Virus record (IMG/VR): IMGVR_UViG_3300021961_000330
Location: 1 to 33,811 of that record
Source: a virus
Direction: 5' to 3' (one strand)
DNA: 33,811 nucleotides
The stretch's first letter is position 1, and the number at the start of each line of letters is the position of its first letter. Shown here piece after piece: positions 1 to 33,811 of the stretch. Below the pieces are notes generated by a model. It saw nothing but the letters and a program-made list of their open reading frames with translations, did no database searches and was not told the DNA's origin. The translations under genes were made by a program, and so were the position numbers.

Positions 1-117
1 GGTGACGCCTTTGGTTATCTGATGTTGGGCGGTGGCGAGCAGCGGCGGCTGCGCCGGGGTTCGTATCAATCAGCTGGCGGGACATACACCGCAGCAACCG
101 ATTTTGAGATTTTCTAA
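1..117 (+). CDS. terL: Large terminase, 3' end only (second copy)
   Basis: This is the last 38 codons and stop of the large terminase gene that is complete at 32006-33523. It is in frame from base 1 and begins with the Gly-Asp-Ala-Phe-Gly nuclease motif that carries the last catalytic Asp. It is partial only because the window opens inside the gene. The TAA stop at 115-117 shares its last base with the ATG of the next gene, so the two are translationally coupled. Confidence 0.95.
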   Translation, partial: GDAFGYLMLGGGEQRRLRRGSYQSAGGTYTAATDFEIF

Positions 118-405
118 TGCTTTCTTTTGGAAATAACTTTCTAAGCACCGGGCAGCAGCTGGTCCCCTTTCAGCCAGAGCATTTGTCGCACCTGGAGCTA
201 AAAGGCGACGAGCTGCATTTTGCCGATCTGATCCCGAATTATTACCAATACATCCTGGATAATGCAATCCCCGAGCTCGCCTGGACCGGGATTCGTGATG
301 GCAAACCCGTTTTGATCTTTGGGCTGCGCCCTTATTGGGTTGGTGTTGCAGAGGTTTGGATGGTTCCTGGTCGTGGAATCGAGCGCAATCCGATAGCGTT
401 AATCA
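1..405. repeat. Terminal redundancy, left copy
   Basis: These 405 bases match 33407-33811 at 402 positions. The differences are T128/C33534, G185/A33591 and C281/T33687. All three fall in third codon positions of the gene starting at 117 and are silent (Phe, Leu, Ala). The overlap runs through the end of terL into the next gene and has no special structure, so it looks like the closing overlap of a circular or circularly permuted genome rather than a functional direct terminal repeat. Confidence 0.95.
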
Positions 406-7981: not shown

Positions 7982-8488
7982 ATGAACCCAATGATGGCGT
8001 TTGCAGCGGTATCTGCTGTTGGTCAATTGTCAGCTGGAGCTGCTCAGCAGCGTCAGTACAACGCGCAAGCGGCTCAAGCGGAGCTCAAGGGTCGCAGCGA
8101 GGCGATTGCTTACAAGCAGCAGGGTGCTGATGTCCTAAAGAAACTCAATGAGAACATGGCGACCATTGTGGCAAGAGCTGCTGCTGGTGGAGTTCTTGCC
8201 AATACTGGCAGCGCAGCTGCGCTGCAAGGCTACTCCATGAAAGAGGGCGTGCGAGAGTTCAACATATCGAAAGACAATGCGGTCCTGGCAGAAGGTATGG
8301 CATCTCACCAGGCAGCCATCTATCGCCAAGCTGGTCGAACAGCGATGACAAACGCAATCGTTGGGGCGGTAGGGGCGATTGGTACTGGATATTTCCAATC
8401 AACACAATTGGCAATGCCCGCTTTAAGTGTGTCACCAACGCTGCCCACACCAGGAGCCAGCTTCGCTGCCCCTCGTTATTTCGGATAA
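7982..8488 (+). CDS. Internal virion (ejection) protein, T7 gp14-like
   Basis: The 168-residue product is Ala/Gln-rich and helical, with hydrophobic segments near the N-terminus (AFAAVSAVGQLSAGA) and at about residues 122-140 (AIVGAVGAIGTGYF), the pattern of T7 gp14, which enters the outer membrane at infection. GAAQQRQYNAQAAQAELKGRSEAIAYKQQGADVLKKLNENMATIVARAAAGGV is typical of this family. It lies between the nozzle gene and two large ejection proteins, the order seen for gp14-gp15-gp16 in T7. Confidence 0.75.
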   Translation: MNPMMAFAAVSAVGQLSAGAAQQRQYNAQAAQAELKGRSEAIAYKQQGADVLKKLNENMATIVARAAAGGVLANTGSAAALQGYSMKEGVREFNISKDNAVLAEGMASHQAAIYRQAGRTAMTNAIVGAVGAIGTGYFQSTQLAMPALSVSPTLPTPGASFAAPRYFG

Positions 8489-8491
8489 ATT

Positions 8492-10675
8492 ATGGCTACA
8501 TTACCCCGCTATCAACGGTTAGGTGTCCGAGCTGCTCAGCCTGGCGATATTGATTTTGCTGATGCCCGTGAGGCAGCCCGGCTTGGTCAAAATATTAGCC
8601 AACAAGTCGAGCGCATGGCGTCGTTTGTTTACAAAGAAGAACAAATGAAAGCCGAGCAGCGTGGTGCTCAAATAGCGCAAGAGCTCGGGGCAACCGAGAC
8701 GTTGACCAGGTTGCAGTCAGCTGGCGGTCCGACCACTATTGCCGAGCGGTCTGCCTATAACATCGCGAATCGGATTGCATCAACAGAAGTCGAGACAGAA
8801 GCTCGCCTGGTTATTGGCAACATCCTAAACGAAGCCGAAATAAATAACACGCCACTACCAGATGTTCAGGCTCGGCTGCGCAACGTTGTGGACGGTTTTC
8901 CTGCCGCGATGTCGAGCCTCGATCCCCAGGTTGCTGGCGTGCTGCGTGCCCAACTATTTGGCGTGGCTGCCCAGGCAGAAATGCGTTACACATCGATTGC
9001 GTCCAAGAAGGCGCAAGAAGATTTGCAAGGCAAAGCCATTCAGGGCATCACACAAAGACAGAACGATGTTTATTCGTTTGTTAGATCAGACATGGACCCG
9101 GCTGCCAAAGAAGAAGCCTTGGGCTACGAGATAGCTGGTCTTGAGACGTTCATGCGTGATCGTGGGTTCAGCGAAGCGCAAATATCAAAAGTGCTGATTG
9201 AAACCAAAGCGCAGTCCGCGATTGAAAGCACAATTTCAACATTTCAGCGATTGCAAACTCTGGATGAACAAAAAGCGTTTATTGAGCAGCTGGAGAAAAA
9301 CCCACCAGCGGAGCTGTCATTAGAGAAAACACGAACCTTATCAAAGTCATTCCAGACAGAAGTTAACCACACTATTGCCACCTTGAAAGAGGAGTTGCGT
9401 GCCAGGACGGCTGCGGCTAAAGCAGAAAGAACAGACATTAAGTCCGACCTGGCTGACATGAGATCAATCATGGCTAAGGGTGGCACGCCGAACCCGGAAA
9501 CAATGGCTGCGCTTGAGACGAGAGCCAATGCGCTGCCAGCAGATATCCGGGGAGATCTAAGCATCAACATTGCCGAGATGAAGTTTGTGCAAAGCCGCGC
9601 TGAGTTGTTCCGCAAGATGTCGCCGACGCAGCTGCAAACCACAATTAACGAGTTGTCTCAGGGCATCGACGGTCTTGGTGGCAAAGGTTTGGATACGATT
9701 GCTGAGGTCGAAGTGTTGGATGTGGCGAAAGGGCTGCTCAACACCATGAACGCAGAGCTTAATAAAGACCCGCTATCCTGGGGCGCTAATACAGGCGTTA
9801 TTCAATTCAAGCCAATCGATCTTTCCACACCAGAGACAGCAGAAGCAACAGTTAAGCAGCGTATCGCTGATGCGCGCACAGTAAGTGCCAGGTACGGAAA
9901 CGCGCCAAGATTTTTGACAGACGAAGAAACAAACGTGATGTCAACGCTATTGACCGAATCCCCAAGACCGCAGCGCATGGCATTGCTGTCTGGGCTTGTC
10001 AAAAATTTTGGTACTCATTCCGCGACCGTATTAAAGCAGCTGTCAAATGTTGATCCCAGCCTGGCACACGTTGGCGGTCTGGTTTTGCTTGGTAAAGCGC
10101 CAACAGCCAACACGGCGATGGCTGGCTTTGACATGATGAAAGAGGGCAACAAGGCGATTGGCGTAGATAGCGCAGAGGCTAAAGAATCATTCGCCTCCGC
10201 TGTTGGTCCGGCGTTGCTGTATCAATCGCAATCACGCGCGTCTGGCATGGAGGTGGCGCGAGCTATCTATACCAAGCAGGCAATTGATAAAGGTCTGGAC
10301 CAGTTCGACGACAAGCTCTGGGAGAAGTCTATTCAGCTGGCGTTCGGTTTTGATGAGCGCACCAAGACAGGTGGCATTGCCGAGGTCCGGGGCAAGATGA
10401 CCCTGCTGCCATCTGATTTCGATGACGACAAGTTTGAAAGTGTTTTAGAAACCCTGACCTTAAAACAGCTCCAGGACAATACCGGGTTGACCGACATTGA
10501 CCCGGCGATCGTAGCCAGCATCAATAAAAACGATAAGGTTTACCCGGTGCTGGAAAGCGAGGGTAGATATTTGCTAGTCTTTGATAACGGCAATGGCGGC
10601 GTTAGCCACTTTACTGATCGCAAGGGGCACGTTATCTATTTGAACATTCCTAAGCTAATGGGCACACGCAAATGA
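8492..10675 (+). CDS. Internal virion (ejection) protein, T7 gp15-like
   Basis: The 727-residue product is almost wholly helical, polar, without membrane segments or recognisable catalytic motifs; T7 gp15 has 747 residues. The start (LPRYQRLGVRAAQPGDIDFADAREAARLGQNISQQVERMASFVYKEE) is typical of podovirus ejection proteins, including the Pro-Arg-Tyr-x-Arg opening. Such proteins leave the head before DNA and build the channel across the cell envelope. It overlaps the next gene by 4 bases (ATGA). Confidence 0.7.
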   Translation: MATLPRYQRLGVRAAQPGDIDFADAREAARLGQNISQQVERMASFVYKEEQMKAEQRGAQIAQELGATETLTRLQSAGGPTTIAERSAYNIANRIASTEVETEARLVIGNILNEAEINNTPLPDVQARLRNVVDGFPAAMSSLDPQVAGVLRAQLFGVAAQAEMRYTSIASKKAQEDLQGKAIQGITQRQNDVYSFVRSDMDPAAKEEALGYEIAGLETFMRDRGFSEAQISKVLIETKAQSAIESTISTFQRLQTLDEQKAFIEQLEKNPPAELSLEKTRTLSKSFQTEVNHTIATLKEELRARTAAAKAERTDIKSDLADMRSIMAKGGTPNPETMAALETRANALPADIRGDLSINIAEMKFVQSRAELFRKMSPTQLQTTINELSQGIDGLGGKGLDTIAEVEVLDVAKGLLNTMNAELNKDPLSWGANTGVIQFKPIDLSTPETAEATVKQRIADARTVSARYGNAPRFLTDEETNVMSTLLTESPRPQRMALLSGLVKNFGTHSATVLKQLSNVDPSLAHVGGLVLLGKAPTANTAMAGFDMMKEGNKAIGVDSAEAKESFASAVGPALLYQSQSRASGMEVARAIYTKQAIDKGLDQFDDKLWEKSIQLAFGFDERTKTGGIAEVRGKMTLLPSDFDDDKFESVLETLTLKQLQDNTGLTDIDPAIVASINKNDKVYPVLESEGRYLLVFDNGNGGVSHFTDRKGHVIYLNIPKLMGTRK

Positions 10676-13600
10676 CGTTTCTGCTGCAAGAGCGAGATCC
10701 CTTTGACCTCACGCCAGAGAATGGCGTTAGCAAGCCCATCGGCGGGTTTTCAGAAAACGTATCGGCTGCCTACCAGGGAGCCAGGATGAATGACCAGGCT
10801 TACAGCGAAGCCACCATCCTGAAAGATCAATGGGGTCCAATCGTTGACATGGTTAACGAACGCTCGGGCGGCAAGTCATTTTTTAACCCAGCCAATTATC
10901 TAAGCAGCGGGTTCTTTGATGCGTCGGCATCAGAGGGTAACGCGCAGCGCCAATACCAATATACCGCTGCGCAAATTGTTAAATTCATAAACCAAAACAA
11001 AGAGGCATACCCAGAGCTGCAATGGGTAACGCACGATGAAGTATTGAATCGCGGCAAGCAAGCGGCGATAAAGGCGCGCCAGAATTTAATGGATCTTGAG
11101 GGAAGATCGCCTGGTGGCTTGAATACGATTGGTAGATTTGTCGGCGCAATTGGAGGCGCTGCCACAGACCCGTTTAACTGGCAAGGTGGTTTGGCGGTTC
11201 GCACCAGCGGCTCGCTGTTGTCTATGTCTTTTAAAGAGGCGTTTGTTAACGCTGGCTTAGAGTCAATGGCGCAGTCTGGTGTGCAGAAGTGGTACAAAGA
11301 GCTGGGCTACGAGTACACGCCGGAACAGTTCTGGTATTCAGTAGCCGCAGCTGGTGCGTTTGGCGGGGCGATGCCTGGCGCGCTCAAGATCGGCGGCAAG
11401 ACAATTTCCCTGACGACAGACCAGATGCGCAAGGGATACGACGCCCTGGTTAAGTCTGGCGCACACAAGCCATCGGAAGTGGAGCTGTCTGCGCTGCGGC
11501 AATCCGAGAACATTGTTGAGGACATGAAAGCGAACCCCCTGGTTGATGCTGTTGAGCATGAGACCAGGCTGAACGAGGCTAAGGCTGCGGTTGATAGCGG
11601 CGAGCCCCCACCGATCTCTGACGCACCCGCATCCCCTTTAAAACCAACGCGCAGCGTAAATGAAGCAGATAACCTGGACGGGCTGATCTACAAGTTTGAT
11701 CCGCAAACAATTAAGGTTGACGCCGAGACATTCCAATTCAAAGCTGGTGGCGATGAGTTCGGCGTGACTGAGCGGCTGCAAGGCGTGACCCAATGGGACC
11801 CGATCAAAGCCGGGCAAGTCACCATTTACGAATATGCCGATGGCGGGCGCTTTGTTGCCGACGGGCATCAGCGCGTGGGGCTGGCGCGTCGCATCCAATC
11901 CCAGGACCCTACCCAGGAAGTGGCGCTTTATGGTCACTTGCTGCGCGAGACCGATGGCATCACGCCGGAGATGGCGCGCGTAATTGCAGCCGTAAAGAAC
12001 ATTGCTGAGGGTACGGGGACCGCAATCGATGCAGCCAAGGTGCTGCGCGTCGCGCCTGAGCGTATCGGCGAGCTGCCACCCAGGTCTGCCCTGGTCCGCC
12101 AGGCGCAGGGGCTGGTGCTGCTATCTGACAAGGCGTTTGGTGCTGTTGTTAACCAGGTAATCCCGGCAAACTACGCTGCATTAGTTGGGCGCTTAGTGCC
12201 GGAAGATGAGGGCTTGCAAGATGCAGCCATTGCCATTTTGGCAAAGACAGACCCTGCCAACGAGTTCCAGGCTGAAGCCATCATACGCCAAGTTCGCGAT
12301 GCTGGTGCGCAAACAATGAAACAAGAGGGGCTGTTCGGCGAGGAGATAATCACCGAGAGTTTTTTTACCGAGCGCGCCAGGATCTTGGACCGGGCTCAGA
12401 AGCAACTGCGCCAGGATAAGGCGGCATTTAGTACATTAACCCGCAATGCCGAACGCCTGGAAGCAGAAGGCAACCAACTGGCACGCCAGGCTAACGAGAA
12501 AAGGACAGCTAATGACACGCAAGCAATCGCGCTCCTCCAGGCGCTCGCAAACATCAGAGGACCAATATCAGACGCCCTCAGCGCAGCAGCCAGATCCGCT
12601 CGCGAAAGCGGCAGCTACGCAGAACCTACTCGCAACTTCGTCGATGCTGTCAGACGAGCAGCTGAATCAGGCGATTTCGACCGGGTATCGTCTGGCGATG
12701 TTGGACAGCTTGTCGATGCTCCAACGCAAAGCCGCACGGCTAAGGATGTCTCAGAGCGAGTCGTCGATGACTTCGACGAGCCAGCCGGAGTAGGGGCTAA
12801 GGACCAGGGCGACCAGATCGAGGCAGATCTGTTCGGGCAGCGCGACCCGGTTCGAGAGGCTGTCCAGGAAGATATCAATCTGCGCCAGGATTTAAAACGC
12901 CAGCTCGACGAGGGTGCTGCGGAAGCCGACATCGACAATCACCCGGCGGTTGTCAAAGCGATCGAGGAAGCCAAAGCCATCCAGGAAACGCACCTGGTAG
13001 AGGGTTATGGTTCTGACTTGTGGTTATCGTCGCGCGAGTTTAAGATAGGCGATGAGGCGGTTGTTGGTTACAGCTCAGCTGTTGAGCGGTTGTTTGAAAG
13101 GGCTCGCCGACTAGCCTGGACTGACGAGGGCAAGGCAGCTCCCGATGTGCCGACCAAGTATGAAAAGAAAGCGGTCATTGTCCTCGGTCCCCCAGCAGCT
13201 GGCAAGAGCACGATTGCCAACCCTATTGCGCAAAAGATGGGCGCGGTTATCCTGGACCCGGATGATATTAAGAAGGCGATGCCGGAATATAAAAACGGCA
13301 TTGGCGCTAACGCCGTCCATGAAGAAAGCAGCTACATAACCAGCTTGGTCGAACAGGTCGCGGTAGGCAGCGGTGCTAACGTCTTGATCCCCAAGGTTGG
13401 CAGTAACCCGAAAAGCGTCAAAGGCTTGATCGAGCGGCTGCGCCAGAACGGTTACGAGATTGACCTGGTAGACATGAAGGTGGATTACCAGGAAGCGCGG
13501 CGTCGGATGTTCGTGCGCTTTGTGGATACAGGTCGCCTGGTCCCGCCAAACTATGTGCGCGAAGTGGGCAACAATCCTGGCAAAACATTTGATACATTAA

Positions 13601-13956
13601 AGGCAGAAGGAGCAGCAGATGGCTACACAAGGATCGACAACAACGTCCCCCAGGGAGCAGAAAGACCAATCCTCGAAGATACCCGGAACCTACTGGACGG
13701 AACAGAGCTACGATTACGAGACGGCGGAGAGCCGGGCTTTGGATATGGCGCAGAACGCTCAATCACAGAAACTGGTGCAAGGGATCTTAAAGAAGCTGAA
13801 CCAGAAATAGACATGGACCTGGAGGTCCCGGTTGATTTGCGCGTGGACCCAGAGACCGGGGAGATTGCAGCGCAGACAGTAACGCTGCGGCAGATCCAAG
13901 ATGATATTGCCCAGGACCAGAAAATGCTAGACCGCTTGAGAGGGTGCGCCAAATGA
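10672..13956 (+). CDS. Polyvalent ejection protein with ParB-like and zeta-toxin kinase domains
   Basis: The 1094-residue product is the third ejection-type protein. Residues 1-270 contain the virion-protein part, with GAIGGAATDPFNWQGGLAV and a hydrophobic stretch near 225-240. Around residues 335-500 lies a ddrB-type ParB-like domain: FGVTERLQGVTQWDPIKAG, then VADGHQRVGLARR at 395-407, where the Asp-Gly-His-x-Arg motif corresponds to the ParB nucleotide-binding loop. Residues about 833-965 form a zeta-toxin-type P-loop kinase with Walker A GPPAAGKST at 839-847, LDPDDIKKAMPEY at 861-873 and an Arg-rich lid near 943-960. Such polyvalent proteins are thought to enter the cell with the DNA and act on host targets. 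No lytic transglycosylase motif, as in T7 gp16, is apparent. Confidence 0.8.
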   Translation: MTFLLQERDPFDLTPENGVSKPIGGFSENVSAAYQGARMNDQAYSEATILKDQWGPIVDMVNERSGGKSFFNPANYLSSGFFDASASEGNAQRQYQYTAAQIVKFINQNKEAYPELQWVTHDEVLNRGKQAAIKARQNLMDLEGRSPGGLNTIGRFVGAIGGAATDPFNWQGGLAVRTSGSLLSMSFKEAFVNAGLESMAQSGVQKWYKELGYEYTPEQFWYSVAAAGAFGGAMPGALKIGGKTISLTTDQMRKGYDALVKSGAHKPSEVELSALRQSENIVEDMKANPLVDAVEHETRLNEAKAAVDSGEPPPISDAPASPLKPTRSVNEADNLDGLIYKFDPQTIKVDAETFQFKAGGDEFGVTERLQGVTQWDPIKAGQVTIYEYADGGRFVADGHQRVGLARRIQSQDPTQEVALYGHLLRETDGITPEMARVIAAVKNIAEGTGTAIDAAKVLRVAPERIGELPPRSALVRQAQGLVLLSDKAFGAVVNQVIPANYAALVGRLVPEDEGLQDAAIAILAKTDPANEFQAEAIIRQVRDAGAQTMKQEGLFGEEIITESFFTERARILDRAQKQLRQDKAAFSTLTRNAERLEAEGNQLARQANEKRTANDTQAIALLQALANIRGPISDALSAAARSARESGSYAEPTRNFVDAVRRAAESGDFDRVSSGDVGQLVDAPTQSRTAKDVSERVVDDFDEPAGVGAKDQGDQIEADLFGQRDPVREAVQEDINLRQDLKRQLDEGAAEADIDNHPAVVKAIEEAKAIQETHLVEGYGSDLWLSSREFKIGDEAVVGYSSAVERLFERARRLAWTDEGKAAPDVPTKYEKKAVIVLGPPAAGKSTIANPIAQKMGAVILDPDDIKKAMPEYKNGIGANAVHEESSYITSLVEQVAVGSGANVLIPKVGSNPKSVKGLIERLRQNGYEIDLVDMKVDYQEARRRMFVRFVDTGRLVPPNYVREVGNNPGKTFDTLKAEGAADGYTRIDNNVPQGAERPILEDTRNLLDGTELRLRDGGEPGFGYGAERSITETGARDLKEAEPEIDMDLEVPVDLRVDPETGEIAAQTVTLRQIQDDIAQDQKMLDRLRGCAK

Positions 13957-16433
13957 GCTTTCGCGAATGTATCGTTAATGCTGAAGCCGAGGGCACGATT
14001 ACCCCGGAGCAGGCCAGGGAGGCTCGCCAGCTGTTTGACGAGTTGGAGACCGAATACCAGGGGAATATGGGCGGTCCGGCTGCAAGCTCCAAAGCCGCCA
14101 AAGACGCCTTTAACGCCCTGGAGCGTGAGGTCATCGAGCGCAAACGTCGCAAGCTGCTCCAGGTCCAAAACTGGCAAAAGATTAAAGTCAACCTGGAAGG
14201 CTATCGAAACCTAAAGGGTGAGCGTGATATTGGTCGCGCAGCCGAGGCTTTGTTCGATAGCGACAACTTGTCCAAATACTCTAGCGTCGTGCAGCGTGAG
14301 GCTGCCGTCGAGCGCGCTGCGACCAGGAACTTGTATAACGTCCTGGCAACGTTCCGGCGCAACCTGGTGGGCGAGACCAGGAACAAGGCGCAGCTCAAGA
14401 ACATGATCCGCGAAGTGTTTGAGCGCGGCAGCACAGGGGACGCCAGCGCCAGGGAGATGGCAGACGCCTGGACGCAAACGAGCGACTACTTGCGCAAGCG
14501 TTTTAACTCAGCTGGCGGTCGCATACCCAAGCGTAAGGATTGGGGTTTACCCCAGGTCCACGATACCCTGGCTGTTCGCAAAGCAACGTTTGAGCAATGG
14601 CGAGACTTTATCCAGCCCCGCCTGGATAGCGTCAAAATGATTGACGAGAAAACCGGGTTGCCGTTTACGCCAGAGCGCCTAGAGCTCGCGCTGCACGGAG
14701 TGTATGAAACCATCCGCACCGACGGCATGAATAAGCTCATACCTGGCGCAGCTGGTCAAGGTCGCTCTGTTGCCAATCGCCACATCGATCACCGTTTCCT
14801 GGTGTTTAAGGATGCTGACAGCTGGTTGCAGTATCAGGAGAAGTTTGGCAACGCAAACCCGTTCGATACCATGTTCGGGCATATTAAGTCGATGTCCAAA
14901 GAGATCGCCCTCATGGAGATCCTGGGACCCAACCCCAAGGCTACGGTTAACTTTCTAAAGCAGACGATCAAAAAAGAAGCGGGCATGGCAGCTGACGAGG
15001 CAGCAGAAAACGCAGCCACCAAATCAGCAGCCCGCATTGATAGCTTTTACCTGGCGGTTACTGGTGCGAATAACGCGCCCATCGATGGTAAGTTTGCCTC
15101 CACGTTTGCCGGGTTGCGCCAGGTGCTGCAATCAGCGCAGCTGGGCGCAGCGGCTCTGTCGGCTGTCACCGATGTCAACTTCAATCGGATGGCTCGCGCT
15201 CATGTTGGCTTGCCGCAAGTAAGTACGATTACCGATTACTTGAAGGTGCTAAACCCATTGTCTGCCGAGGAAAAGGGCAAGCTGGCAATTCGCCTGGGCT
15301 TGATTGCCGAGGGCTGGACCAGCCTGGCAGCCGGGCAGATGCGTTATGTTGGGGATATTTCCGGTCCAGAAGTTACGCGCCGTGTGGCTGACTTTGTGAT
15401 GCGCGCATCGCTGTTGTCTCCTTGGACCCAGGCAGGGCGCTGGGCTTTTGGCATGGAGTTCCTGGGAACCCTGGCTGACAACGTAGGCAAGACGTTTGAC
15501 CAGCTCGACAAACCGCTGCGCGAGACTTTAAAGCGGTACAACCTGCAAGCCGATCATTGGGACATCATGCGCAGCACCGAGCTGTATGACCATGAGGGCG
15601 CAAAGTTCTTGCGAGCAGAGGACATCGAAGCACGCGCAGATCTGTCGCCTGGTCTGGCGCGAGACCTGGCTACCAGGATGATGGAGATGATCGAGACCGA
15701 GACCAACTTCGCGGTCCCGTCCAGCAGCTTGCGCGGTCGCGTGGCGTTAACTGGCGAAACCCGACCAGGAACCATTGCGGGCGAAATCACCAGGTCGTTT
15801 GCCATGTATAAGAATTTTGGCGTCACCCTGGTTAACACGCACATCATGCGTGGCATCACGCAGCAGGGCGCAAAAGCAAAGGGACGCTACTTCGCCGATC
15901 TGATTATCAGCACGACGCTGATGGGCGCGCTGGCGATGCAGCTAAAGGAAATGTCCAAGGGTCGCGATCCGCGCCCAATGACAAGCCCAGAGTTTTGGGG
16001 CGCTGCGCTGCTCCAGGGTGGCGGTCTTGGTATCTTCGGCGATTTCATGTTCTCAGATGTCAACCGCTTTGATCGCGGGCTGGCAGACACGATTGCGGGA
16101 CCCGTCGTCGGTTTTGCCGATGATGTGCGCAAGCTAACTATTGGCAACCTGGTAGAGGCGTCTAAGGGTGAGGACACAAACGCAGCGTCTGAATTTGTCA
16201 AGTTCGCTGCACGCTATACGCCAGGCAGCAGCTTGTGGTACACGCGCCTGGCGCTTGAGCGTTTAGTCATCGACCAGGCTCAGCTGCTTGTTGACCCAAA
16301 GGCAAAGCAAAAGATCCGCAGACTAGAGAACCGATACCGCAAAGAGTTCGGTCAAGAGTATTGGTGGGCTCCTGGTGAAACAGCTCCAGAGCGTGCGCCA
16401 GATATTGAAAATGTACTAGCGCCCGCACCCTGA
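13953..16433 (+). CDS. Large ejection protein, C-terminal virion-protein family
   Basis: The 826-residue, mostly helical product completes the ejection set. The C-terminal third carries blocks conserved in podovirus ejection proteins: RSFAMYKNFGVTLVNTHIM, then ADLIISTTLMGALAMQLKEM (a membrane-like helix at about residues 645-665), then PGSSLWYTRLALERLVIDQ and RLENRYRKEFGQEYWWAPG at the end. In several phages this C-terminal part is fused to the preceding protein; here the two are separate genes overlapping by 4 bases (ATGA at 13953). That ATG is preferred to the upstream in-frame GTG at 13944. A role in the trans-envelope conduit, like T7 gp16, is inferred. Confidence 0.75.
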   Translation: MSFRECIVNAEAEGTITPEQAREARQLFDELETEYQGNMGGPAASSKAAKDAFNALEREVIERKRRKLLQVQNWQKIKVNLEGYRNLKGERDIGRAAEALFDSDNLSKYSSVVQREAAVERAATRNLYNVLATFRRNLVGETRNKAQLKNMIREVFERGSTGDASAREMADAWTQTSDYLRKRFNSAGGRIPKRKDWGLPQVHDTLAVRKATFEQWRDFIQPRLDSVKMIDEKTGLPFTPERLELALHGVYETIRTDGMNKLIPGAAGQGRSVANRHIDHRFLVFKDADSWLQYQEKFGNANPFDTMFGHIKSMSKEIALMEILGPNPKATVNFLKQTIKKEAGMAADEAAENAATKSAARIDSFYLAVTGANNAPIDGKFASTFAGLRQVLQSAQLGAAALSAVTDVNFNRMARAHVGLPQVSTITDYLKVLNPLSAEEKGKLAIRLGLIAEGWTSLAAGQMRYVGDISGPEVTRRVADFVMRASLLSPWTQAGRWAFGMEFLGTLADNVGKTFDQLDKPLRETLKRYNLQADHWDIMRSTELYDHEGAKFLRAEDIEARADLSPGLARDLATRMMEMIETETNFAVPSSSLRGRVALTGETRPGTIAGEITRSFAMYKNFGVTLVNTHIMRGITQQGAKAKGRYFADLIISTTLMGALAMQLKEMSKGRDPRPMTSPEFWGAALLQGGGLGIFGDFMFSDVNRFDRGLADTIAGPVVGFADDVRKLTIGNLVEASKGEDTNAASEFVKFAARYTPGSSLWYTRLALERLVIDQAQLLVDPKAKQKIRRLENRYRKEFGQEYWWAPGETAPERAPDIENVLAPAP

Positions 16434-16471: not shown

Positions 16472-18940
16472 ATGTCCGATATCTCAATCAATCCGGTTAC
16501 CCGCCGTGTGCAATATACGGGCAATACGGGGCTAGGTCCTTTTGTTTTTACATTCAATATCCTGACTAGCACGGACATCGTTGCGTATAAAAACAGCACG
16601 CTGTTAACGCTGACGACAGACTATACCGTCACGATCAACGCTAACGGTACTGGCTCCATTACCTTAACTGGATCTGGCAACGGCACAGCCTTGATAAGCG
16701 CAGATATCCTAACCATCATTGGCGGTCGCGAGCTTAGTCGTACAACTGACTTTGTAACGGCTGGCGATCTGTTGGCGTCGAGCCTGAATGAACAGCTCGA
16801 CAGCCAGGTCATTATGGTGCAGCAGCTGGATGAGAAGGTCGAGCGCACCATGCGCGTGAGCCCGGATGATGTTTACACCGACATGACTTTGCCTATTAAA
16901 AGCAATCGCGCTGGCAAGACTTTGGCATTTCACGAAACATCTGGCGACCCCGTTGCTGGTCCAGATCTGGCATCGGTCACAACAGTTGCCACTCAATCGG
17001 CAAATATCAACACGGTTGCCGACAATATTGGAAGCGTCAATACTGTCGCTGGAATATCTGGCAACGTGACTACCGTGGCGGGCATTTCTGGTAATGTCAC
17101 CACAGTCGCTAGCAACAATGCCAATGTCACGACTGTTGCCACCGACCTGGCTGGCTCTGACAATATCGGTACGGTGGCTGGGGCAATTGCCAATGTCAAT
17201 CTGACAGGAGGCAGTATTGCTAACGTTAATACAGTTGGAACCAACCTAGGTGGCATTGACACGATTGGTACTGTTGCTACTAACATTGCAGATGTAAATG
17301 CGGTGGGTGGCAGTATTGCTAATGTCAATACAGTTGCTGGAGAGTTGGGCGTTGGTCAAGATGTAACCGTTGTTGCCGCAAATTTATCTGGCACCAATAC
17401 AATCGGAACCGTTGCCACCAACATTGCAAACGTCAACACTGTGGGCGGTATTTCTGCAAACGTCACGACCGTGGCTGGGATTAGCGCAGACGTTACCACG
17501 GTTGCCGCTGACGGTACGGATATCGGAACCGTTGCTACTAACATTGCAAATGTAAATACTGTCGCAGGAATTAGTGCTAATGTCACGACGGTTGCGGGCA
17601 ATACAGCCAACATCAATGCCGTGGTAGCAGACGCCACAGATATTGGAACCGTTGCGACCAACATCGCTAATGTCAATGCCGTAGCTGGGATTAGCGCTGA
17701 TGTCACCGCCGTAGCTGCTGACGCAACCGATATTGGCACGGTTGCTACTGATATAACGGGCGCAAATACAATTGGCACGGTAGCTGGAATTGCAGGCAAT
17801 GTTACGACCGTTGCTGGCATCAGCGGCAATGTTACGACGGTAGCTAGCAATAGCGCCAACGTCACAACAGTAGCTGGTATTAGTGGGAATGTCACGACTG
17901 TTGCTGGCATTTCTTCTGATGTAACGACAGTCGTAACCTATGCAGCAGACATCGGCACGGTTGCGGGCATATCTGCCAACGTCACAACAGTCGCTGGTGT
18001 AAGCGGTGATGTTTCAACAGTCGCTGGTATTAGCGGAAATGTCACGACGGTGGCTGGTGTTTCAGCCGATGTCACGACGGTTGCTGGGGTATCTGCCAAC
18101 GTCACAACAGTCGCTGGAATTTCTGCCGATGTCACGACGGTTGCAGCAGATGGAACAGATATCGGCTTGGTGGCTGGCGTATCAGCGGACGTTACAACAG
18201 TAGCTGGGCAAATTAACCCAACCAACAATATTTCAACGGTCGCTAGTGCCGCCGCCAATATTGCTACGGTCGCTGGTATATCCGCAAACGTAACCACGGT
18301 CGCTGGAATTTCTAATGACGTAACAACCGTTGCAAACGATGGTACTGACATTGGAACCGTTGCGACCAACATTGCGAATGTTAATACGGTTGCTGGTATA
18401 TCTGCCAATGTTACAACAGTAGCTGGAATTTCTAGCGATGTAACCACCGTCGCGACAAACGTAGCAGACATTACAAATTTCTCGGACGTTTATTACGGGC
18501 CTGCGGCAAGTGCGCCATCAACCCGCCAGGACACTACCGCACTCCAAGCTGGTGACTTGTACTACAACACAACAAGCGACCAAATGTTTGCTTATAGCGG
18601 CAGCGCATGGGCGGCTACTGCAACTGGGGTAGTGACCGAGGTGTCAGCTGCGGTTGCTGCCTCTAATATTGACTTATCCTCGGCTAACTACTTTACGAAG
18701 ACGATTAGCGGCACGACCACGTTTACTGTCTCAAACGTCGCCAGCAGCGGCACGGTGTCGGCGTTTATTTTGACGCTCACCAATGGCGGCGCTTACACGA
18801 TCAACTGGTTTGGCGGTGTTACTTGGAATCTTGGAACCGCACCAATATTAACGGTAAGCGGGACGGATATATTGGCGTTCTTTACGAGCGATGGAGGCAC
18901 GACATGGCGCGGTTTGGTTTTAGCTCAAGCGGTGGCTTAA
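16472..18940 (+). CDS. Tail fibre with T7 gp17-like N-terminus and decapeptide repeats
   Basis: The 822-residue product has three parts. Residues 1-160 are a podovirus fibre anchor (RRVQYTGNTGLGPFVFTFNILTSTDIVAYKN, then LTGSGNGTALI and a helix with LNEQLDSQVIMVQQLDEKVERTMRV), which should bind the nozzle/adaptor. Residues about 167-667 are roughly fifty copies of a ten-residue unit of the form (A/G)-I-S-x-(N/D)-V-T-T-V-A, which should form the shaft. The C-terminus (residues 670-822) has YYGPAASAPSTRQDTTALQAGDLYYN and a tip with INWFGGVTWNLGTAP and GTTWRGLVLAQAVA, common endings of aquatic phage fibres. The protein is likely trimeric and binds the host surface. GGAG upstream serves as ribosome binding site. 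Confidence 0.85.
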   Translation: MSDISINPVTRRVQYTGNTGLGPFVFTFNILTSTDIVAYKNSTLLTLTTDYTVTINANGTGSITLTGSGNGTALISADILTIIGGRELSRTTDFVTAGDLLASSLNEQLDSQVIMVQQLDEKVERTMRVSPDDVYTDMTLPIKSNRAGKTLAFHETSGDPVAGPDLASVTTVATQSANINTVADNIGSVNTVAGISGNVTTVAGISGNVTTVASNNANVTTVATDLAGSDNIGTVAGAIANVNLTGGSIANVNTVGTNLGGIDTIGTVATNIADVNAVGGSIANVNTVAGELGVGQDVTVVAANLSGTNTIGTVATNIANVNTVGGISANVTTVAGISADVTTVAADGTDIGTVATNIANVNTVAGISANVTTVAGNTANINAVVADATDIGTVATNIANVNAVAGISADVTAVAADATDIGTVATDITGANTIGTVAGIAGNVTTVAGISGNVTTVASNSANVTTVAGISGNVTTVAGISSDVTTVVTYAADIGTVAGISANVTTVAGVSGDVSTVAGISGNVTTVAGVSADVTTVAGVSANVTTVAGISADVTTVAADGTDIGLVAGVSADVTTVAGQINPTNNISTVASAAANIATVAGISANVTTVAGISNDVTTVANDGTDIGTVATNIANVNTVAGISANVTTVAGISSDVTTVATNVADITNFSDVYYGPAASAPSTRQDTTALQAGDLYYNTTSDQMFAYSGSAWAATATGVVTEVSAAVAASNIDLSSANYFTKTISGTTTFTVSNVASSGTVSAFILTLTNGGAYTINWFGGVTWNLGTAPILTVSGTDILAFFTSDGGTTWRGLVLAQAVA
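16971..18470 (+). repeat. Decapeptide-coding tandem repeat region in the fibre shaft
   Basis: About 1.5 kb encodes a tandem series of ten-residue units with consensus AGIS-x-(N/D)-VTTV, with occasional variants such as DIGTVATNIANVN. At protein level the copies are very similar, but the codons differ between neighbouring copies, so DNA identity is much lower than protein identity. Both strands are free of stops for long stretches here, which produces long spurious antisense frames. Confidence 0.85.
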
Positions 18941-18941
18941 T

Positions 18942-20561
18942 ATGACTGTACGTTCTATCACACAAGCAGCGGCTGGTTTTAAGCCTAAAGTTGTTGATTT
19001 GGCAACGGCTGAATTTAATGTTTCGCCAATAAATTATGTTGATGTGTCCCCAGTATATGCACATATGACATCAGGAACTTTTAGTTCTGATGGAACAAAA
19101 ATGTATATTGTCAGCACAATCACGGATATTATTTATGAATATGACCTATCTACGGCGTGGGATTTAAGCACAGTAACGCATAATCAAAATAGCTCATCCA
19201 TAACTGCTCAAGGCACATTTCCCAATGCGTTGTTTTTTAAATCTGACGGAACAAAGATGTATGTTCCCGAAAATGCCAACGACAACGTAAACGAATATAA
19301 CCTATCAACGGCATGGGATATCAGCACTCTAACTTATTCTCAGAGTTTTTCTATTGCGACAGAAGCGCCAGGCCCTACAGGTGTTTGGTTTAAACCTGAC
19401 GGGACAATAATGTATGTTGTCTGTTTCACTAATGACGCGGTTTTTCAGTACACATTGTCTACTGCTTGGGATGTTAGTACAGCTTCTTATGCGTCAAAAA
19501 CAAAGTCTGTTGCAACTGAAGATTCCATACCAACTGGTATATTTTTAAAACCAGATGGGACAAAAATGTGGATTTCAGGCAATACTAACGACCGTGTTTA
19601 CGAATACAGCTTATCTACGGCATGGGATGTAAGCACGGCTTCTTACTCAACATCGTATCTTGCTAATTTTGACGGCCTAGAAACATCTTTAGTTAATGTT
19701 TATTTTAAGAGTGATGGCACCGGAATGTTCACCTTTGGTGGTGGCAACAGAAAAGTATACAAACATGATTTATCTACGGCATGGGATTTAAGTACAGCAA
19801 CTTTTAACTACCCATCCACAAATTACTTCCGCACCGCCACCCAAGACAACTCACCGCAAGCATTGTTTTTCAAACCTGACGGCACGATTATGTATCAGGT
19901 TGGGGCGCAAAACGACAAAGTATCTCAATATAGCCTGTCAACAGCATGGGACATTACGACTGCATCATATTCTCAAGCCTTTTCTGTTCTTACTCAAACA
20001 GGTTTACCAAGGGGGTTATTTTTTAAACCTGACGGGACAAAGATGTATGTTTCTGAAAGCATAACTGATACTGTTCTTGAGTATGATTTGAGTACAGCAT
20101 GGGATGTAAGTACAGCAAGTTACTCTCAAAATTTTAGCGTTGTAACTCAAGAAAACAATCCTATAGGTTTGTGGTTTAAAGATGATGGGGCAAAGATGTT
20201 TGTCGTAGGGACTGGAAGCGATGCAGTCCAAGAATACAACCTATCTACAGCATGGGATATAAGTACCGCCAGTCACTCGCAGGGATTTAGCGTTGCAACA
20301 GAAGAGACATCTCCTCTAGGATTGTCTTTTACAGAAGACGGGAGGCAAATGCTTATTGTAGGCACCACCAACAGAGCGTTATTTGCATACGACCTATCTA
20401 CAGCTTGGGACGTAAGCACAGCTAGTTATTCATCAACTTTTAATCTTCCCGTTTTGCTTTACCTAAGCCCATATTCTTGTTTTGTGAACTCCGACAAAAG
20501 CAAAATTTATATTTCTAACCAGACTAGCCCGGACGATGGTGTCTATGCTCTTGATTTGTGA
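18942..20561 (+). CDS. Propeller-like repeat protein, probable tail receptor-binding protein
   Basis: The 539-residue product is a short N-terminus plus ten repeats of about 46 to 50 residues. Each repeat has the form (G/L)-(V/L)-(F/W)-F-K-x-DGTKMY, a variable strand with an Asp or Asn, then EY-(D/N/S)-LSTAWD-(V/I/L)-STASY. Nine full LSTAWD motifs are visible; the tenth unit ends early at YALDL, as when a last blade is completed by N-terminal sequence. The spacing suits a beta-propeller of the NHL/YVTN sort. DNA here is clearly richer in A and T than the flanking genes, a sign of separate acquisition. The gene begins one base after the fibre stop and precedes a fibre chaperone, so a role at the tail tip in host or polysaccharide binding is likely but unproven. 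Confidence 0.7.
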   Translation: MTVRSITQAAAGFKPKVVDLATAEFNVSPINYVDVSPVYAHMTSGTFSSDGTKMYIVSTITDIIYEYDLSTAWDLSTVTHNQNSSSITAQGTFPNALFFKSDGTKMYVPENANDNVNEYNLSTAWDISTLTYSQSFSIATEAPGPTGVWFKPDGTIMYVVCFTNDAVFQYTLSTAWDVSTASYASKTKSVATEDSIPTGIFLKPDGTKMWISGNTNDRVYEYSLSTAWDVSTASYSTSYLANFDGLETSLVNVYFKSDGTGMFTFGGGNRKVYKHDLSTAWDLSTATFNYPSTNYFRTATQDNSPQALFFKPDGTIMYQVGAQNDKVSQYSLSTAWDITTASYSQAFSVLTQTGLPRGLFFKPDGTKMYVSESITDTVLEYDLSTAWDVSTASYSQNFSVVTQENNPIGLWFKDDGAKMFVVGTGSDAVQEYNLSTAWDISTASHSQGFSVATEETSPLGLSFTEDGRQMLIVGTTNRALFAYDLSTAWDVSTASYSSTFNLPVLLYLSPYSCFVNSDKSKIYISNQTSPDDGVYALDL

Positions 20562-26654: not shown

Positions 26655-27365
26655 TTAGGCTGCCAGGGCAGCGCGGTCTAAGATATTCTTCACTTGCTGC
26701 GGTCTCCAAGCGGGACCGTTGGCTGCGTCGGGCAGCACGGGCTGGTTGTTTTTATCGATGCGCAGCGGAACCCTCCACTCGTTGAGCTCGTTCGCCAGGT
26801 CGCGCAGCGTGGTGTGACCGTAGGCTTGCAGCTTTTCGATAAAGGGCAGGACACGCAGGGCGTTGTCGGCTGCTTTGGCTGCCAGGGCAGCGCCACCAGC
26901 TGCCGCGCCAACTTGAGGGCAAGGGCTGCCCAGCTGCTTGGTCTTGCGTACCTGGGCGAGACCCTCGCGGGTCCGGCGGCTGATACGACGGCTCTCAAAC
27001 TCGGCGATCGACGCGAGCAGCTGGATGGTTAAGCGGCTAACGTCGGGGTCATCCATGTTGGGCATATCCAGGGCGACAAACTTAACCTGGCTGTCCATCA
27101 GGTTAGCGATGAAGCTCAGGTTACGGGCGAGACGGTCCAGCTTGGCGACGACCAGGACCGCTCCGGCTTTGCGGCATTGGTCGATGGCAGCCAGCAGCTG
27201 CGGGCGGTAGTTCTTGCGACCGCTTTCGATCTCGACAAACTCAGCCAGGATCTCGCAGCCCCTGGCGCAGCACCAGTTCTGGACCGCCTCACGCTGCGCG
27301 CCGAGACCGTTGCCAGCCTCGCCCTGGCGCTGGGTTGAGACCCGGAAATAGACAATGGCTTTCAT
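26655..27365 (-). CDS. Serine recombinase (resolvase/invertase or small integrase)
   Basis: The 236-residue product has an intact serine-recombinase catalytic domain: YFRVSTQRQ with catalytic Ser10 and Arg8, ESGRKNYRPQL, then LVVAKLDRLARN with D77, R78 and R81 corresponding to the active-site Arg pair, and an E-helix (SRLTIQLLASIAEFESRRISRRTREGL). After an Ala/Gly-rich linker (about 150-170) comes a DNA-binding end with TTLRDLANELNEWRVPLR and GPAWRPQQVKNIL, the recombinase-type helix-turn-helix. It could integrate the phage or invert a segment. Strong ribosome binding site AGGAGG precedes the ATG. No flanking inverted repeats suggest an invertible segment nearby. It supports a temperate or formerly temperate lifestyle. 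Confidence 0.85.
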   Translation of the reverse strand: MKAIVYFRVSTQRQGEAGNGLGAQREAVQNWCCARGCEILAEFVEIESGRKNYRPQLLAAIDQCRKAGAVLVVAKLDRLARNLSFIANLMDSQVKFVALDMPNMDDPDVSRLTIQLLASIAEFESRRISRRTREGLAQVRKTKQLGSPCPQVGAAAGGAALAAKAADNALRVLPFIEKLQAYGHTTLRDLANELNEWRVPLRIDKNNQPVLPDAANGPAWRPQQVKNILDRAALAA

Positions 27366-32009: not shown

Positions 32010-33523
32010 GCAATATACCGTCGTTAGATCTGGATTTTTCAAATAGCCCGACCGTGTGGAAGTTTCTGCACGACGACAGCTTTGTGCGTGGTTTGATGGG
32101 TCCGGTTGGCTCGGGGAAGTCTTACGGCTGCGCGTCGGAGATTATTCGCCGGGCGGTCCAGCAAAAGCCGTCGCCCAGGGACGGGATTCGCTACTCGCGG
32201 TTTGTGATTGTGCGAAACACCTACCCTGAGCTGCGCACAACGACGATCAAGACCTGGCAGGAGCTGTTCCCGGAGGACATCTGGGGCGCTATTCGCTGGC
32301 AGCCACCAATTACCCACCACCTAAAGCTGCCCGCCAGGGGGGATGCAGCCGGGATTGACTGCGAAGTTATCTTCATGGCGCTGACCAGCCCCCAGGATGT
32401 GCGTAAATTGTTGTCCCTGGAGCTCACGGGAGCCTGGGTAAACGAGGCGCGCGAGCTGCCCAAGGCGGTTATCGATGGTTTGACCCACCGGGTTGGGCGA
32501 TATCCCACTAAGCGCGATGGCGGTCCGACCTGGTACGGCATTTGGATGGACACTAACCCGCCGGATAATGATCATTGGTGGCACGACCTAGCAGAAAAAA
32601 ACCCGATTAAGGGAGAGTTCCCCTGGCAGTTCTACCGCCAGCCTGGTGGCGTCATCCAAGCGGACAAGGGTGAGGTCCCTGAAAGCAGCCCGGAGAGCCG
32701 GGGTTTTATGTTTTCCGGTGGGAAGTGGTGGAAGATCAACCCCAAAGCGGAGAACAGGCACAACTTGCCGCCTGGTTACTACTCGCAACTAATGGGCGGA
32801 AAAAATGCGGATTGGATTCGCTGCTATGCCGAGGGTAAATACACCTTTGTGCAGGAGGGTCGCCCGGTCTGGTCCGAATATGACGACGAGCTGATGAGCG
32901 GCGACGTTGAGGTGGACCCGTATTACCCGATTCAGATCGGGGTTGACTTCGGTTTGACGCCGGCAGCTATCTTTGGGCAGCGCACCGCTGGCGGCGCGTG
33001 GCGGATCTGCGATGAGCTGGTGACGTTCGATATGGGGCTGGAGCGTTTTGGGCGCGAATTACTCAGCAGGATCGCTGAGCGTTACTCGAAACACGAGATC
33101 CTGATCTGGGGGGACCCCGCTGGGAACAAACGCGACGAGATCTACGAAGTGACCGCCTTCGACCACCTGAGAAGTCTGGGGTTCAAGGCGCAGCCAACTG
33201 AGTCCAACGCCTTCCAGGTTCGTCGTGAGGCGGGCGCGTCGCCAATGACCAGGCTTGTCAACGGGAAGCCCGGTCTCATTGTCGATAAAAAGTGCTTGCG
33301 CCTCCGCAAAAGTCTTAGCGGCGGCTATTTCTTCAAGCGGCAAAGCCTGGGCGCTGGGCAAGAGCGGTATAAAGACAGCCCCGTTAAGAACGAACATTCG
33401 CATTGTGGTGACGCCTTTGGTTATCTGATGTTGGGCGGTGGCGAGCAGCGGCGGCTGCGCCGGGGTTCGTATCAATCAGCTGGCGGGACATACACCGCAG
33501 CAACCGATTTTGAGATTTTCTAA
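32006..33523 (+). CDS. terL: Terminase large subunit
   Basis: The 505-residue product has both terminase domains. Packaging ATPase: Walker A GPVGSGKS at residues 32-39 and Walker B-type TGAWVNEARE with Glu147. Headful nuclease of RNase H fold: IGVDFG with Asp314, IWGDPAG with Asp370, and CGDAFGY with Asp469, the three expected metal ligands. The start codon is TTG (32006), overlapping the previous stop (TTGA), with GGGGAG upstream; no in-frame ATG gives a full ATPase domain. The stop TAA overlaps the next ATG by one base. The last 117 bases recur as bases 1-117. Confidence 0.95.
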   Translation: MSNIPSLDLDFSNSPTVWKFLHDDSFVRGLMGPVGSGKSYGCASEIIRRAVQQKPSPRDGIRYSRFVIVRNTYPELRTTTIKTWQELFPEDIWGAIRWQPPITHHLKLPARGDAAGIDCEVIFMALTSPQDVRKLLSLELTGAWVNEARELPKAVIDGLTHRVGRYPTKRDGGPTWYGIWMDTNPPDNDHWWHDLAEKNPIKGEFPWQFYRQPGGVIQADKGEVPESSPESRGFMFSGGKWWKINPKAENRHNLPPGYYSQLMGGKNADWIRCYAEGKYTFVQEGRPVWSEYDDELMSGDVEVDPYYPIQIGVDFGLTPAAIFGQRTAGGAWRICDELVTFDMGLERFGRELLSRIAERYSKHEILIWGDPAGNKRDEIYEVTAFDHLRSLGFKAQPTESNAFQVRREAGASPMTRLVNGKPGLIVDKKCLRLRKSLSGGYFFKRQSLGAGQERYKDSPVKNEHSHCGDAFGYLMLGGGEQRRLRRGSYQSAGGTYTAATDFEIF

Positions 33524-33811
33524 TGCTTTCTTTCGGAAATAACTTTCTAAGCACCGGGCAGCAGCTGGTCCCCTTTCAGCCAGAGCATTTATCGCACCTG
33601 GAGCTAAAAGGCGACGAGCTGCATTTTGCCGATCTGATCCCGAATTATTACCAATACATCCTGGATAATGCAATCCCCGAGCTCGCTTGGACCGGGATTC
33701 GTGATGGCAAACCCGTTTTGATCTTTGGGCTGCGCCCTTATTGGGTTGGTGTTGCAGAGGTTTGGATGGTTCCTGGTCGTGGAATCGAGCGCAATCCGAT
33801 AGCGTTAATCA
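33407..33811. repeat. Terminal redundancy, right copy
   Basis: This matches 1-405 with three silent differences at 33534, 33591 and 33687. Joining the ends gives a unit of 33,406 bases with unbroken genes through the junction. Confidence 0.95.
33523..33811 (+). CDS. gp13-like protein, 5' part only (second copy)
   Basis: The first 96 codons of the gene seen complete at 117-593, cut by the end of the window. The encoded residues are identical to the first copy; three codons differ silently (ttc/ttt for Phe4, tta/ttg for Leu23, gct/gcc for Ala55). Confidence 0.9.
   Translation, partial: MLSFGNNFLSTGQQLVPFQPEHLSHLELKGDELHFADLIPNYYQYILDNAIPELAWTGIRDGKPVLIFGLRPYWVGVAEVWMVPGRGIERNPIALI

What the first reader, a model, noticed from the sequence alone, without database searches (positions are those of the whole stretch)
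10672..13956. Ejection protein carrying ParB-like and zeta-toxin kinase domains
One large virion-type protein combines an ejection-protein N-terminus, a ddrB-type ParB-like domain (VADGHQRVGLARR, 395-407) and a P-loop kinase of zeta-toxin type (GPPAAGKST, 839-847). Free zeta toxins phosphorylate UDP-amino sugars and block wall synthesis. Delivered with the genome, such a domain could alter the host envelope or nucleotide pools, counter defence, or act on the nucleoid at the first moment of infection.
Basis: partly seen in the sequence, partly recalled or inferred. Interest (0 to 1): 0.75.

Follow-up and report, generated by a model that had tools for sequence, protein, structure and literature searches.

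The report
Phage ejection protein with swappable toxin slot
A protein that a marine bacterial virus probably injects with its DNA carries a DNA-binding-type ParB core and, behind it, an exchangeable enzyme slot that holds a zeta-toxin-like kinase here, an alarmone-synthetase-like toxin in near-identical relatives, and nothing at all in others.

Summary
The ORF, coordinates and both motifs are real. Residues 824-988 match Pfam Zeta_toxin (E 4.6e-22); residues 335-545 are predicted to fold like the ParB/Noc CTPase domain plus HTH. 'DdrB-type' is not supported: the ddrB-ParB model gives no match.

In 97 distinct full-length relatives, the first ~710 residues and last ~48 are conserved, while the segment between is an interchangeable cassette: zeta-type kinase (37), Tas1-like RelA/SpoT-fold pyrophosphokinase (34, plus 10 of a divergent subtype), weak ADP-ribosyltransferase-like (1), or no cassette (15). 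Divergent prophage homologues carry a PBECR1 RNase. Two phages 96-97% identical across 11 kb differ at this slot (zeta versus Tas1-like) and in the tail fibre; a scaffold tree needs at least 17 slot changes.

The kinase keeps Walker A and the catalytic Asp (D864), but the UDP-GlcNAc contact Thr118 of zeta is an invariant Val (V909), and T-to-V abolishes PezT toxicity. Wall-precursor phosphorylation is therefore not supported; the substrate is unknown.

Best reading: a polyvalent/polymorphic-toxin-like ejected virion protein on a T7-like internal-protein scaffold. The parts and concept are known (Iyer 2017; MuF toxins); this carrier and its swapping look like a new variant. Packaging, injection and enzyme activity remain inferred.

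The parts
10672..13956 (+). whole gene: 1094-aa putative ejection/internal virion protein with exchangeable effector slot
10672..11661 (+). aa 1-330, mostly helical N-terminal scaffold, conserved in the family, no known fold found
   Evidence: weak PHROG 8824 match
11674..12015 (+). aa 335-448, ParB/Srx-type CTPase fold with invariant DGHQR (397-401)
   Evidence: 7bnk_B Z 8.2, 3.2 A over 93 aa, model 338-447
12016..12306 (+). aa 449-545, ParB-type HTH/middle domain following the CTPase fold
   Evidence: 7bnr_B Z 7.4, 2.9 A over 92 aa, model 450-544; 4umk Spo0J-parS Z 7.2
12349..12681 (+). aa 560-670, conserved long helices, end of scaffold
   Evidence: residues 346-669 match phrog_10691 and 346-647 match the C-terminus of phrog_21
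12817..13806 (+). aa 716-1045, exchangeable cassette slot; here zeta-type
13141..13635 (+). aa 824-988, zeta-toxin-family P-loop kinase
   Evidence: (PF06414 E 4.6e-22)
13186..13212 (+). Walker A GPPAAGKST, aa 839-847
13261..13263 (+). D864, aligned with catalytic Asp67 of zeta, invariant in 19 relatives
13396..13398 (+). V909, at the position of zeta Thr118 (UDP-GlcNAc contact), invariant Val
13516..13536 (+). R949 and R955, invariant arginines; R949 aligned with zeta Arg158; role of R955 inferred
13807..13953 (+). aa 1046-1094, conserved C-terminal tail that closes the slot in all architectures including cassette-less ones
7982..8488 (+). neighbour: internal virion protein (phrog_418)
8492..10675 (+). 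neighbour: gp15-position head protein (phrog_992), overlaps the gene by 4 nt
13944..16433 (+). neighbour: virion structural protein (phrog_684), overlaps the gene by 13 nt; leaves no room for an immunity gene

Best explanation
The protein is a polyvalent ejection (internal virion) protein of a podophage with a T7-like virion module. The conserved scaffold (aa 1-710) would be packed in the capsid and ejected with the genome; its ParB-type CTPase+HTH core would hold it on, or load it onto, the incoming DNA. Behind it sits a slot for an effector enzyme, closed by a conserved tail. In this phage the slot holds a zeta-fold P-loop kinase that transfers the gamma-phosphate of ATP to a host metabolite other than UDP-GlcNAc (probably a nucleotide-type substrate); in relatives the same slot holds a Tas1-like 3'-pyrophosphokinase, rarely an ART-like or PBECR1 domain, or nothing. 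The effector would act in the newly infected cell, altering host nucleotide or metabolite pools or blunting a defence at the first moment of infection, like injected T4 Alt or the MuF-delivered toxins. Shown: architecture, conservation of the kinase core, slot exchange, dispensability. Inferred: packaging, ejection, DNA binding, activity, substrate, benefit.
For: Zeta kinase. ParB CTPase+HTH fold. Slot: 97 distinct full-scaffold proteins = 37 zeta, 34 Rel, 10 divergent Rel, 15 empty, 1 ART-like. Alternative cassette is Tas1-like: profile vs PDB 6ox6 E 2.2e-17, model's top Foldseek hit 6ox6 E 1.6e-7, VIA Z 14.5, 3.1 A over 162 aa. Exchange: L065 (zeta) vs L066 (Rel) 97.4% nt identity over 8.0 kb up to the slot, then 95.9% over 3.4 kb after it, scaffolds 99.6% identical in protein; at least 17 state changes on the scaffold tree. 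Selection: dN about 0.03-0.12 against dS 0.3-1.5 in six of seven cassette pairs, the seventh being too similar to judge. Virion context. ART-like and PBECR1 in the slot.
Against: No proteomic evidence that any family member is in a virion; no biochemical data. ParB assignment is by predicted fold only (VIA Z 7-8, near background for such tests; no sequence-profile match). The kinase's substrate cannot be read from sequence. A potent toxin would harm a phage that needs a living cell, so its action may be conditional, or aimed at something else. Empty-slot relatives show that the enzyme is not essential.
Confidence: 0.62

Rival explanations
1. Bona fide wall-directed zeta toxin: the ejected domain phosphorylates UDP-GlcNAc and weakens the envelope or blocks wall synthesis.
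For: Pfam Zeta_toxin match and conserved Walker A and catalytic Asp; Iyer et al. proposed this for zeta domains of polyvalent proteins (PMC5512222).
Against: UDP-GlcNAc contact Thr118 is Val in all 19 relatives, Arg120 not kept; T-to-V in PezT is nontoxic (PMC3062530). The swap with a Tas1-like enzyme points to a shared nucleotide theme rather than the wall.
Confidence: 0.12
2. Polymorphic toxin for phage-phage or prophage-host competition: the ejected enzyme stops the cell so that rivals or a failed infection gain nothing (abortive or exclusion role), with diversity driven by rival phages.
For: Alternating toxin-type cassettes in one slot, many changes on the tree, as in MuF polymorphic toxins (PMC5576092, PMC12226406); relatives in alphaproteobacterial genomes and recombination, recombinase and repressor genes suggest some are temperate.
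Against: No immunity gene beside the cassette: downstream gene overlaps by 13 nt, sequence resumes at 96% identity after the swap, and no HD hydrolase of the Apk-immunity kind in 12 Rel-type records (several are fragments).
Confidence: 0.2
3. The kinase is a nucleic-acid end kinase or DNA-repair-type enzyme acting on the incoming genome, tethered by the ParB/HTH core.
For: Weaker matches of the domain to PHROG polynucleotide kinase and Pnkp1; DNA-binding-type neighbour domain.
Against: Zeta_toxin scores far better than other P-loop kinase models; it is replaced by a Tas1-like pyrophosphokinase, an unlikely substitute for end repair.
Confidence: 0.06

Closest known systems
Polyvalent proteins of phages and conjugative elements (Iyer et al. 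2017, PMC5512222)
   Same: Large late-gene phage proteins that string together ParB-type, zeta-kinase, RelA/SpoT, ART and PBECR domains; predicted to enter with the DNA; Helicobacter prophage versions are mosaic
   Different: Here a single fixed scaffold with one slot and a fixed tail; ParB part looks like CTPase+HTH rather than DdrB-ParB; no metallopeptidase or LPD domain found in the window protein; the paper's text does not mention internal virion proteins
MuF polymorphic toxins of temperate phages, incl. Apk2 (PMC5576092, PMC12226406)
   Same: Conserved virion-type N-terminal carrier with variable toxic C-terminal domain, including RelA/SpoT-fold pyrophosphokinases
   Different: No MuF domain; carrier is a T7-like internal virion protein; cassette is internal with a conserved tail after it; no adjacent immunity gene
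Zeta / PezT toxins (PF06414; PMC3062530)
   Same: P-loop kinase core, Walker A, catalytic Asp
   Different: No antitoxin gene beside it, part of a 1094-aa virion-type protein, UDP-GlcNAc contact residues replaced
Tas1 (PDB 6ox6), (p)ppApp synthetase effector
   Same: Fold and sequence profile of the alternative cassette (E 2.2e-17)
   Different: T6SS effector with its own immunity protein; phage cassettes have no visible immunity gene
Halovirus HCTV-5 gene 114, annotated 'zeta toxin and ParB nuclease domain protein' (KC292027)
   Same: Zeta-type domain 31% identical to ours in one ORF annotated with ParB
   Different: Archaeal tailed virus, different scaffold; only the zeta part aligns with ours
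Dunaliella viridis virus SI2 DVVG_00008 and cyanophage P-SCSP1u gene 23
   Same: SI2 protein matches aa 294-610 at 43%; the P-SCSP1u 2563-aa protein matches the ParB/helical block and sits in the gp16 position of a T7-like module
   Different: No match to the zeta domain in either; the P-SCSP1u protein is far larger

Membership tests
Zeta toxin kinase family (PF06414) | profile match over curated cut-off | tested here: met
   78.9 bits vs 22.3
Zeta toxin kinase family (PF06414) | Walker A and catalytic Asp67 equivalent | tested here: met
   Walker A Lys/Ser and D864 invariant in 19 relatives; alignment to 1gvn
UDP-GlcNAc-phosphorylating zeta/PezT toxins | Thr118 and Arg120 contacts to UDP-GlcNAc | tested here: not met
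   Val at the Thr118 position in all, Arg120 position variable
UDP-GlcNAc-phosphorylating zeta/PezT toxins | kinase activity on UDP-GlcNAc | not testable with these tools
   needs enzyme assay
DdrB-like ParB domain (PF18763) | profile match | tested here: not met
   no match at E<=10 in the window genome and four relatives; none in 36 scaffolds
ParB/Noc (CTPase + HTH) | CTPase fold followed by HTH domain | tested here: met
   predicted fold only: Foldseek Noc/ParB prob 1.00; VIA 338-447 Z 8.2, 450-544 Z 7.4
ParB/Noc (CTPase + HTH) | sequence profile match to ParB_N or a solved ParB | tested here: not met
   (only a second, extra domain in L095 matches ParB_N weakly, E 0.0012)
ParB/Noc (CTPase + HTH) | CTP binding and DNA clamping | not testable with these tools
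   needs biochemistry
Polyvalent proteins | multiple effector-type domains in one late-gene phage polypeptide | tested here: met
Polyvalent proteins | delivered with the genome | not testable with these tools
   gene order only
MuF polymorphic toxins | MuF N-terminal domain | tested here: not met
   no MuF match in the Pfam scan of the window protein or of 36 scaffolds
Polymorphic toxins (incl. MuF) | variable toxin domain on a constant carrier | tested here: met
   but the slot is internal, followed by a conserved tail
Polymorphic toxins (incl. MuF) | cognate immunity gene next to the toxin | tested here: not met
   13-nt overlap with the next gene; no gene co-swapped next to the slot; no HD_4 hydrolase in 12 Rel-type records
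Tas1/Apk-type pyrophosphokinases (alternative cassette) | RelA/SpoT synthetase fold and conserved Lys/Asp/Arg/Glu motif residues | tested here: met
T7-like internal virion (ejection) proteins | position between gp15-like and tail-fibre genes in a T7-like virion module | tested here: met
T7-like internal virion (ejection) proteins | presence in virion and ejection | not testable with these tools
   no proteomics found; the P-SCSP1u cryo-EM paper models only capsid, portal and tail proteins

The most novel reading that the evidence does not exclude
A podophage ejection protein has become a general-purpose, immunity-free delivery platform: a ParB-type clamp rides in on the genome and carries an exchangeable ATP-consuming enzyme (zeta-fold kinase of a new specificity, Tas1-like pyrophosphokinase, others), and exchange of this slot, together with the tail fibre, is the main difference between otherwise near-identical marine phages.
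Probability: 0.45. Interest if true: 0.78.

Novelty: new variant of a known kind. Interest (0 to 1): 0.64.

Why it matters
It gives a clean natural experiment: phages that are 96-97% identical over 11 kb but carry different enzymes (or, in other members of the family, none) in the same virion-type protein. That makes it possible to ask what an injected effector does for a phage by swapping or deleting one cassette. It also extends the polymorphic-toxin idea from MuF proteins, mostly of siphophages, to an internal virion protein of podophages with T7-like virion modules, and offers a kinase of the zeta fold whose substrate should be new.

Tried and rejected
ParB by sequence: Pfam scans of the window protein and 36 scaffolds, ParB_N and ddrB-ParB searches, and a profile against PDB gave no ParB match; the ubiquitin hits are chance sums over repeats (each about 4 bits) and were ignored. 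PADLOC gave nothing. NCBIfam's XopAJ/AvrRxo1 hit (26 vs cut-off 300 bits) is only the shared zeta fold. Single-sequence phmmer of the zeta domain against PDB gave only generic P-loop proteins; the 19-row profile was needed. An Apk-type immunity hydrolase was sought in 12 Rel-type records and not found (fragments, so weak). Misassembly as the cause of the apparent swap was considered: each cassette on the near-identical scaffold occurs in several contigs whose names point to different samples (L059/L060/L065 vs L045/L066/L068), so it is unlikely. Literature searches for a podophage internal virion protein with zeta or RelA cassettes found none, within an open-access library only.

Full report
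OBSERVATION. Residues 824-988 match Pfam Zeta_toxin far above cut-off. The contig's ends overlap by 405 bp at 99.3% identity, so it is probably a complete genome of about 33.4 kb; the record is a virus record of 33,811 bases. PHROG matches give a T7-like virion module: head-tail adaptor, head assembly protein, major head protein, two tail proteins, internal virion protein, gp15-position head protein, THIS GENE, a virion structural protein, tail fibre. The gene overlaps its upstream neighbour by 4 nt and its downstream neighbour by 13 nt. Elsewhere lie RecE/RecT-like genes, a serine recombinase, a repressor-like gene, holin, endolysin and terminase.

SCAFFOLD. Scans of viral contigs returned 165 and 391 relatives of the scaffold, of which the best 80 per scan could be read. 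Residues 1-710 align end to end. The AlphaFold2 model of residues 1-715 from an alignment of 36 window/viral sequences has mean pLDDT 67.9, about 80 over 340-545. Its top PDB matches are Noc and ParB with Foldseek probability 1.00. The second alignment places the CTPase fold at 338-447 (7bnk_B, Z 8.2, 3.2 A over 93 aa) and the HTH domain at 450-544 (7bnr_B, Z 7.4, 2.9 A over 92 aa; Spo0J-parS 4umk Z 7.2), with Noc 7nfu spanning 328-545. These Z values are modest, but two adjacent domains match in the ParB order, and ParB family members fill the top of the list. No ParB family matches by sequence, ddrB-ParB included. So this is a ParB-type core by predicted fold, not a demonstrated DdrB-type domain.

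SLOT. Relatives keep the scaffold and the last ~48 aa, but the piece between differs. Family profiles built here classify it without overlap between zeta and Rel types. The final tally over 97 distinct complete proteins is zeta 37, Rel-type 34, divergent Rel-type 10, empty 15, ART-like 1. The ART-like case (L176) scores below the Pfam cut-offs. Two Aureimonas homologues (L203, L213) carry PBECR1 RNase domains above cut-off. The Rel type matches Tas1 by profile (E 2.2e-17) and by predicted fold (Foldseek E 1.6e-7; VIA Z 14.5, 3.1 A over 162 aa), with Lys, Asp, Arg and Glu motif residues conserved. The divergent subtype is related to it (hhalign probability 90.8%, E 1.2e-6).

EXCHANGE. L065 (zeta) and L066 (Rel) have scaffolds 99.6% identical in protein. 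Their DNA is 97.4% identical for 8.0 kb up to the slot, then unrelated across about 0.9 kb, then 95.9% identical for 3.4 kb. Over the rest of the shared contig the only other large difference is in the tail fibre. L088/L097 and L032/L034 show the same pattern. On the scaffold tree the four states need at least 17 changes; zeta against the rest needs 13, at least 10 forced by well-supported branches. Six of seven cassette pairs tested have dN far below dS; the seventh pair is too similar to judge, so the enzymes appear to be kept functional.

KINASE. In 19 relatives the Walker A Lys and Ser, D862 and D864, H883, E885, R949 and R955 are invariant. D864 aligns with zeta Asp67, the catalytic base. 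But zeta Thr118, which holds the beta-phosphate of UDP-GlcNAc, aligns with an invariant Val (V909), and Arg120 is not kept; in PezT, Thr-to-Val abolished toxicity (PMC3062530). Hence a kinase of the zeta family is well supported, a UDP-GlcNAc kinase is not.

MECHANISM. Shown: architecture, conserved catalytic core, modular exchange, natural empty versions. Inferred from gene position and from what is known of podophage ejectosomes (PMC11440229 abstract): packaging and ejection. Inferred from fold: DNA association of the ParB core. Inferred from the kinds of enzymes that alternate: action on host nucleotide-type metabolites or RNA at the start of infection. No immunity gene is visible next to the slot, unlike MuF/Apk2 toxins (PMC12226406), which suggests that the producing phage does not need protection, as the protein would be made late and used in the next cell.

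COMPARISON. Polyvalent proteins were described in 2017 with the same domain repertoire, including zeta kinases fused to MuF, RelA/SpoT and PBECR (PMC5512222), and MuF polymorphic toxins have the same logic (PMC5576092). A halovirus protein is already annotated with zeta and ParB domains. What I found no record of is this T7-like internal-protein scaffold as the carrier and the near-isogenic cassette swaps. I therefore rate it a new variant of a known kind.

HOSTS. Twenty-five relatives in bacterial genomes, mostly Alphaproteobacteria (Stappia, Aureimonas, Methylobacterium, Novosphingobium, Rhodobacteraceae), and Ruegeria phage 45A6 point to alphaproteobacterial hosts; the host of this phage is not known.

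Noticed in passing
window 1-405 and 33407-33811: Contig ends overlap by 405 bp at 99.3% identity: probably a complete, circularly closed or permuted genome of about 33.4 kb.
   Followed up: yes
window 17042-18471 and 19099-20436: Tail fibre gene and the following ORF (18942-20561) contain many diverged internal repeats (64-88% identity).
   Followed up: no
window 26655-27365 (-): Serine recombinase (DNA invertase/integrase-like) next to RecE/RecT-like genes and a repressor-like ORF: hints at a temperate life style or DNA inversion.
   Followed up: no
contigs of L065 and L066: Besides the cassette, the other large difference between these near-identical phages is in the tail fibre (1028 vs 1403 aa).
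   Followed up: partly
L034, L070, L094/L095/L098: The slot holds an extra domain before the Rel-type cassette; in L095 it matches ParB_N weakly (E 0.0012), so these proteins may have two ParB-fold domains. L004 has a different extra domain (weak KTSC).
   Followed up: partly
L006, L071, L080, L097, L120, L137, L157, L169: Divergent Rel-type cassette (HIRDSYRFK ... WGWRI ... LVEWYLP) related to but distinct from the Tas1-like one; activity unknown.
   Followed up: partly
L068 (5974-8448): Rel-type cassette cut short by a stop in a phage with a scaffold 99% identical to intact relatives; possible recent loss or sequencing error.
   Followed up: no
L193, L195, L196, L202, L211 and Ruegeria phage 45A6: The ParB/helical block also sits inside giant proteins of about 2600-4400 aa.
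   Followed up: no
L019 (7026-12050): ParB/helical block fused in one ORF to an LPD38 polyvalent domain (E 2.3e-40), a different architecture.
   Followed up: partly
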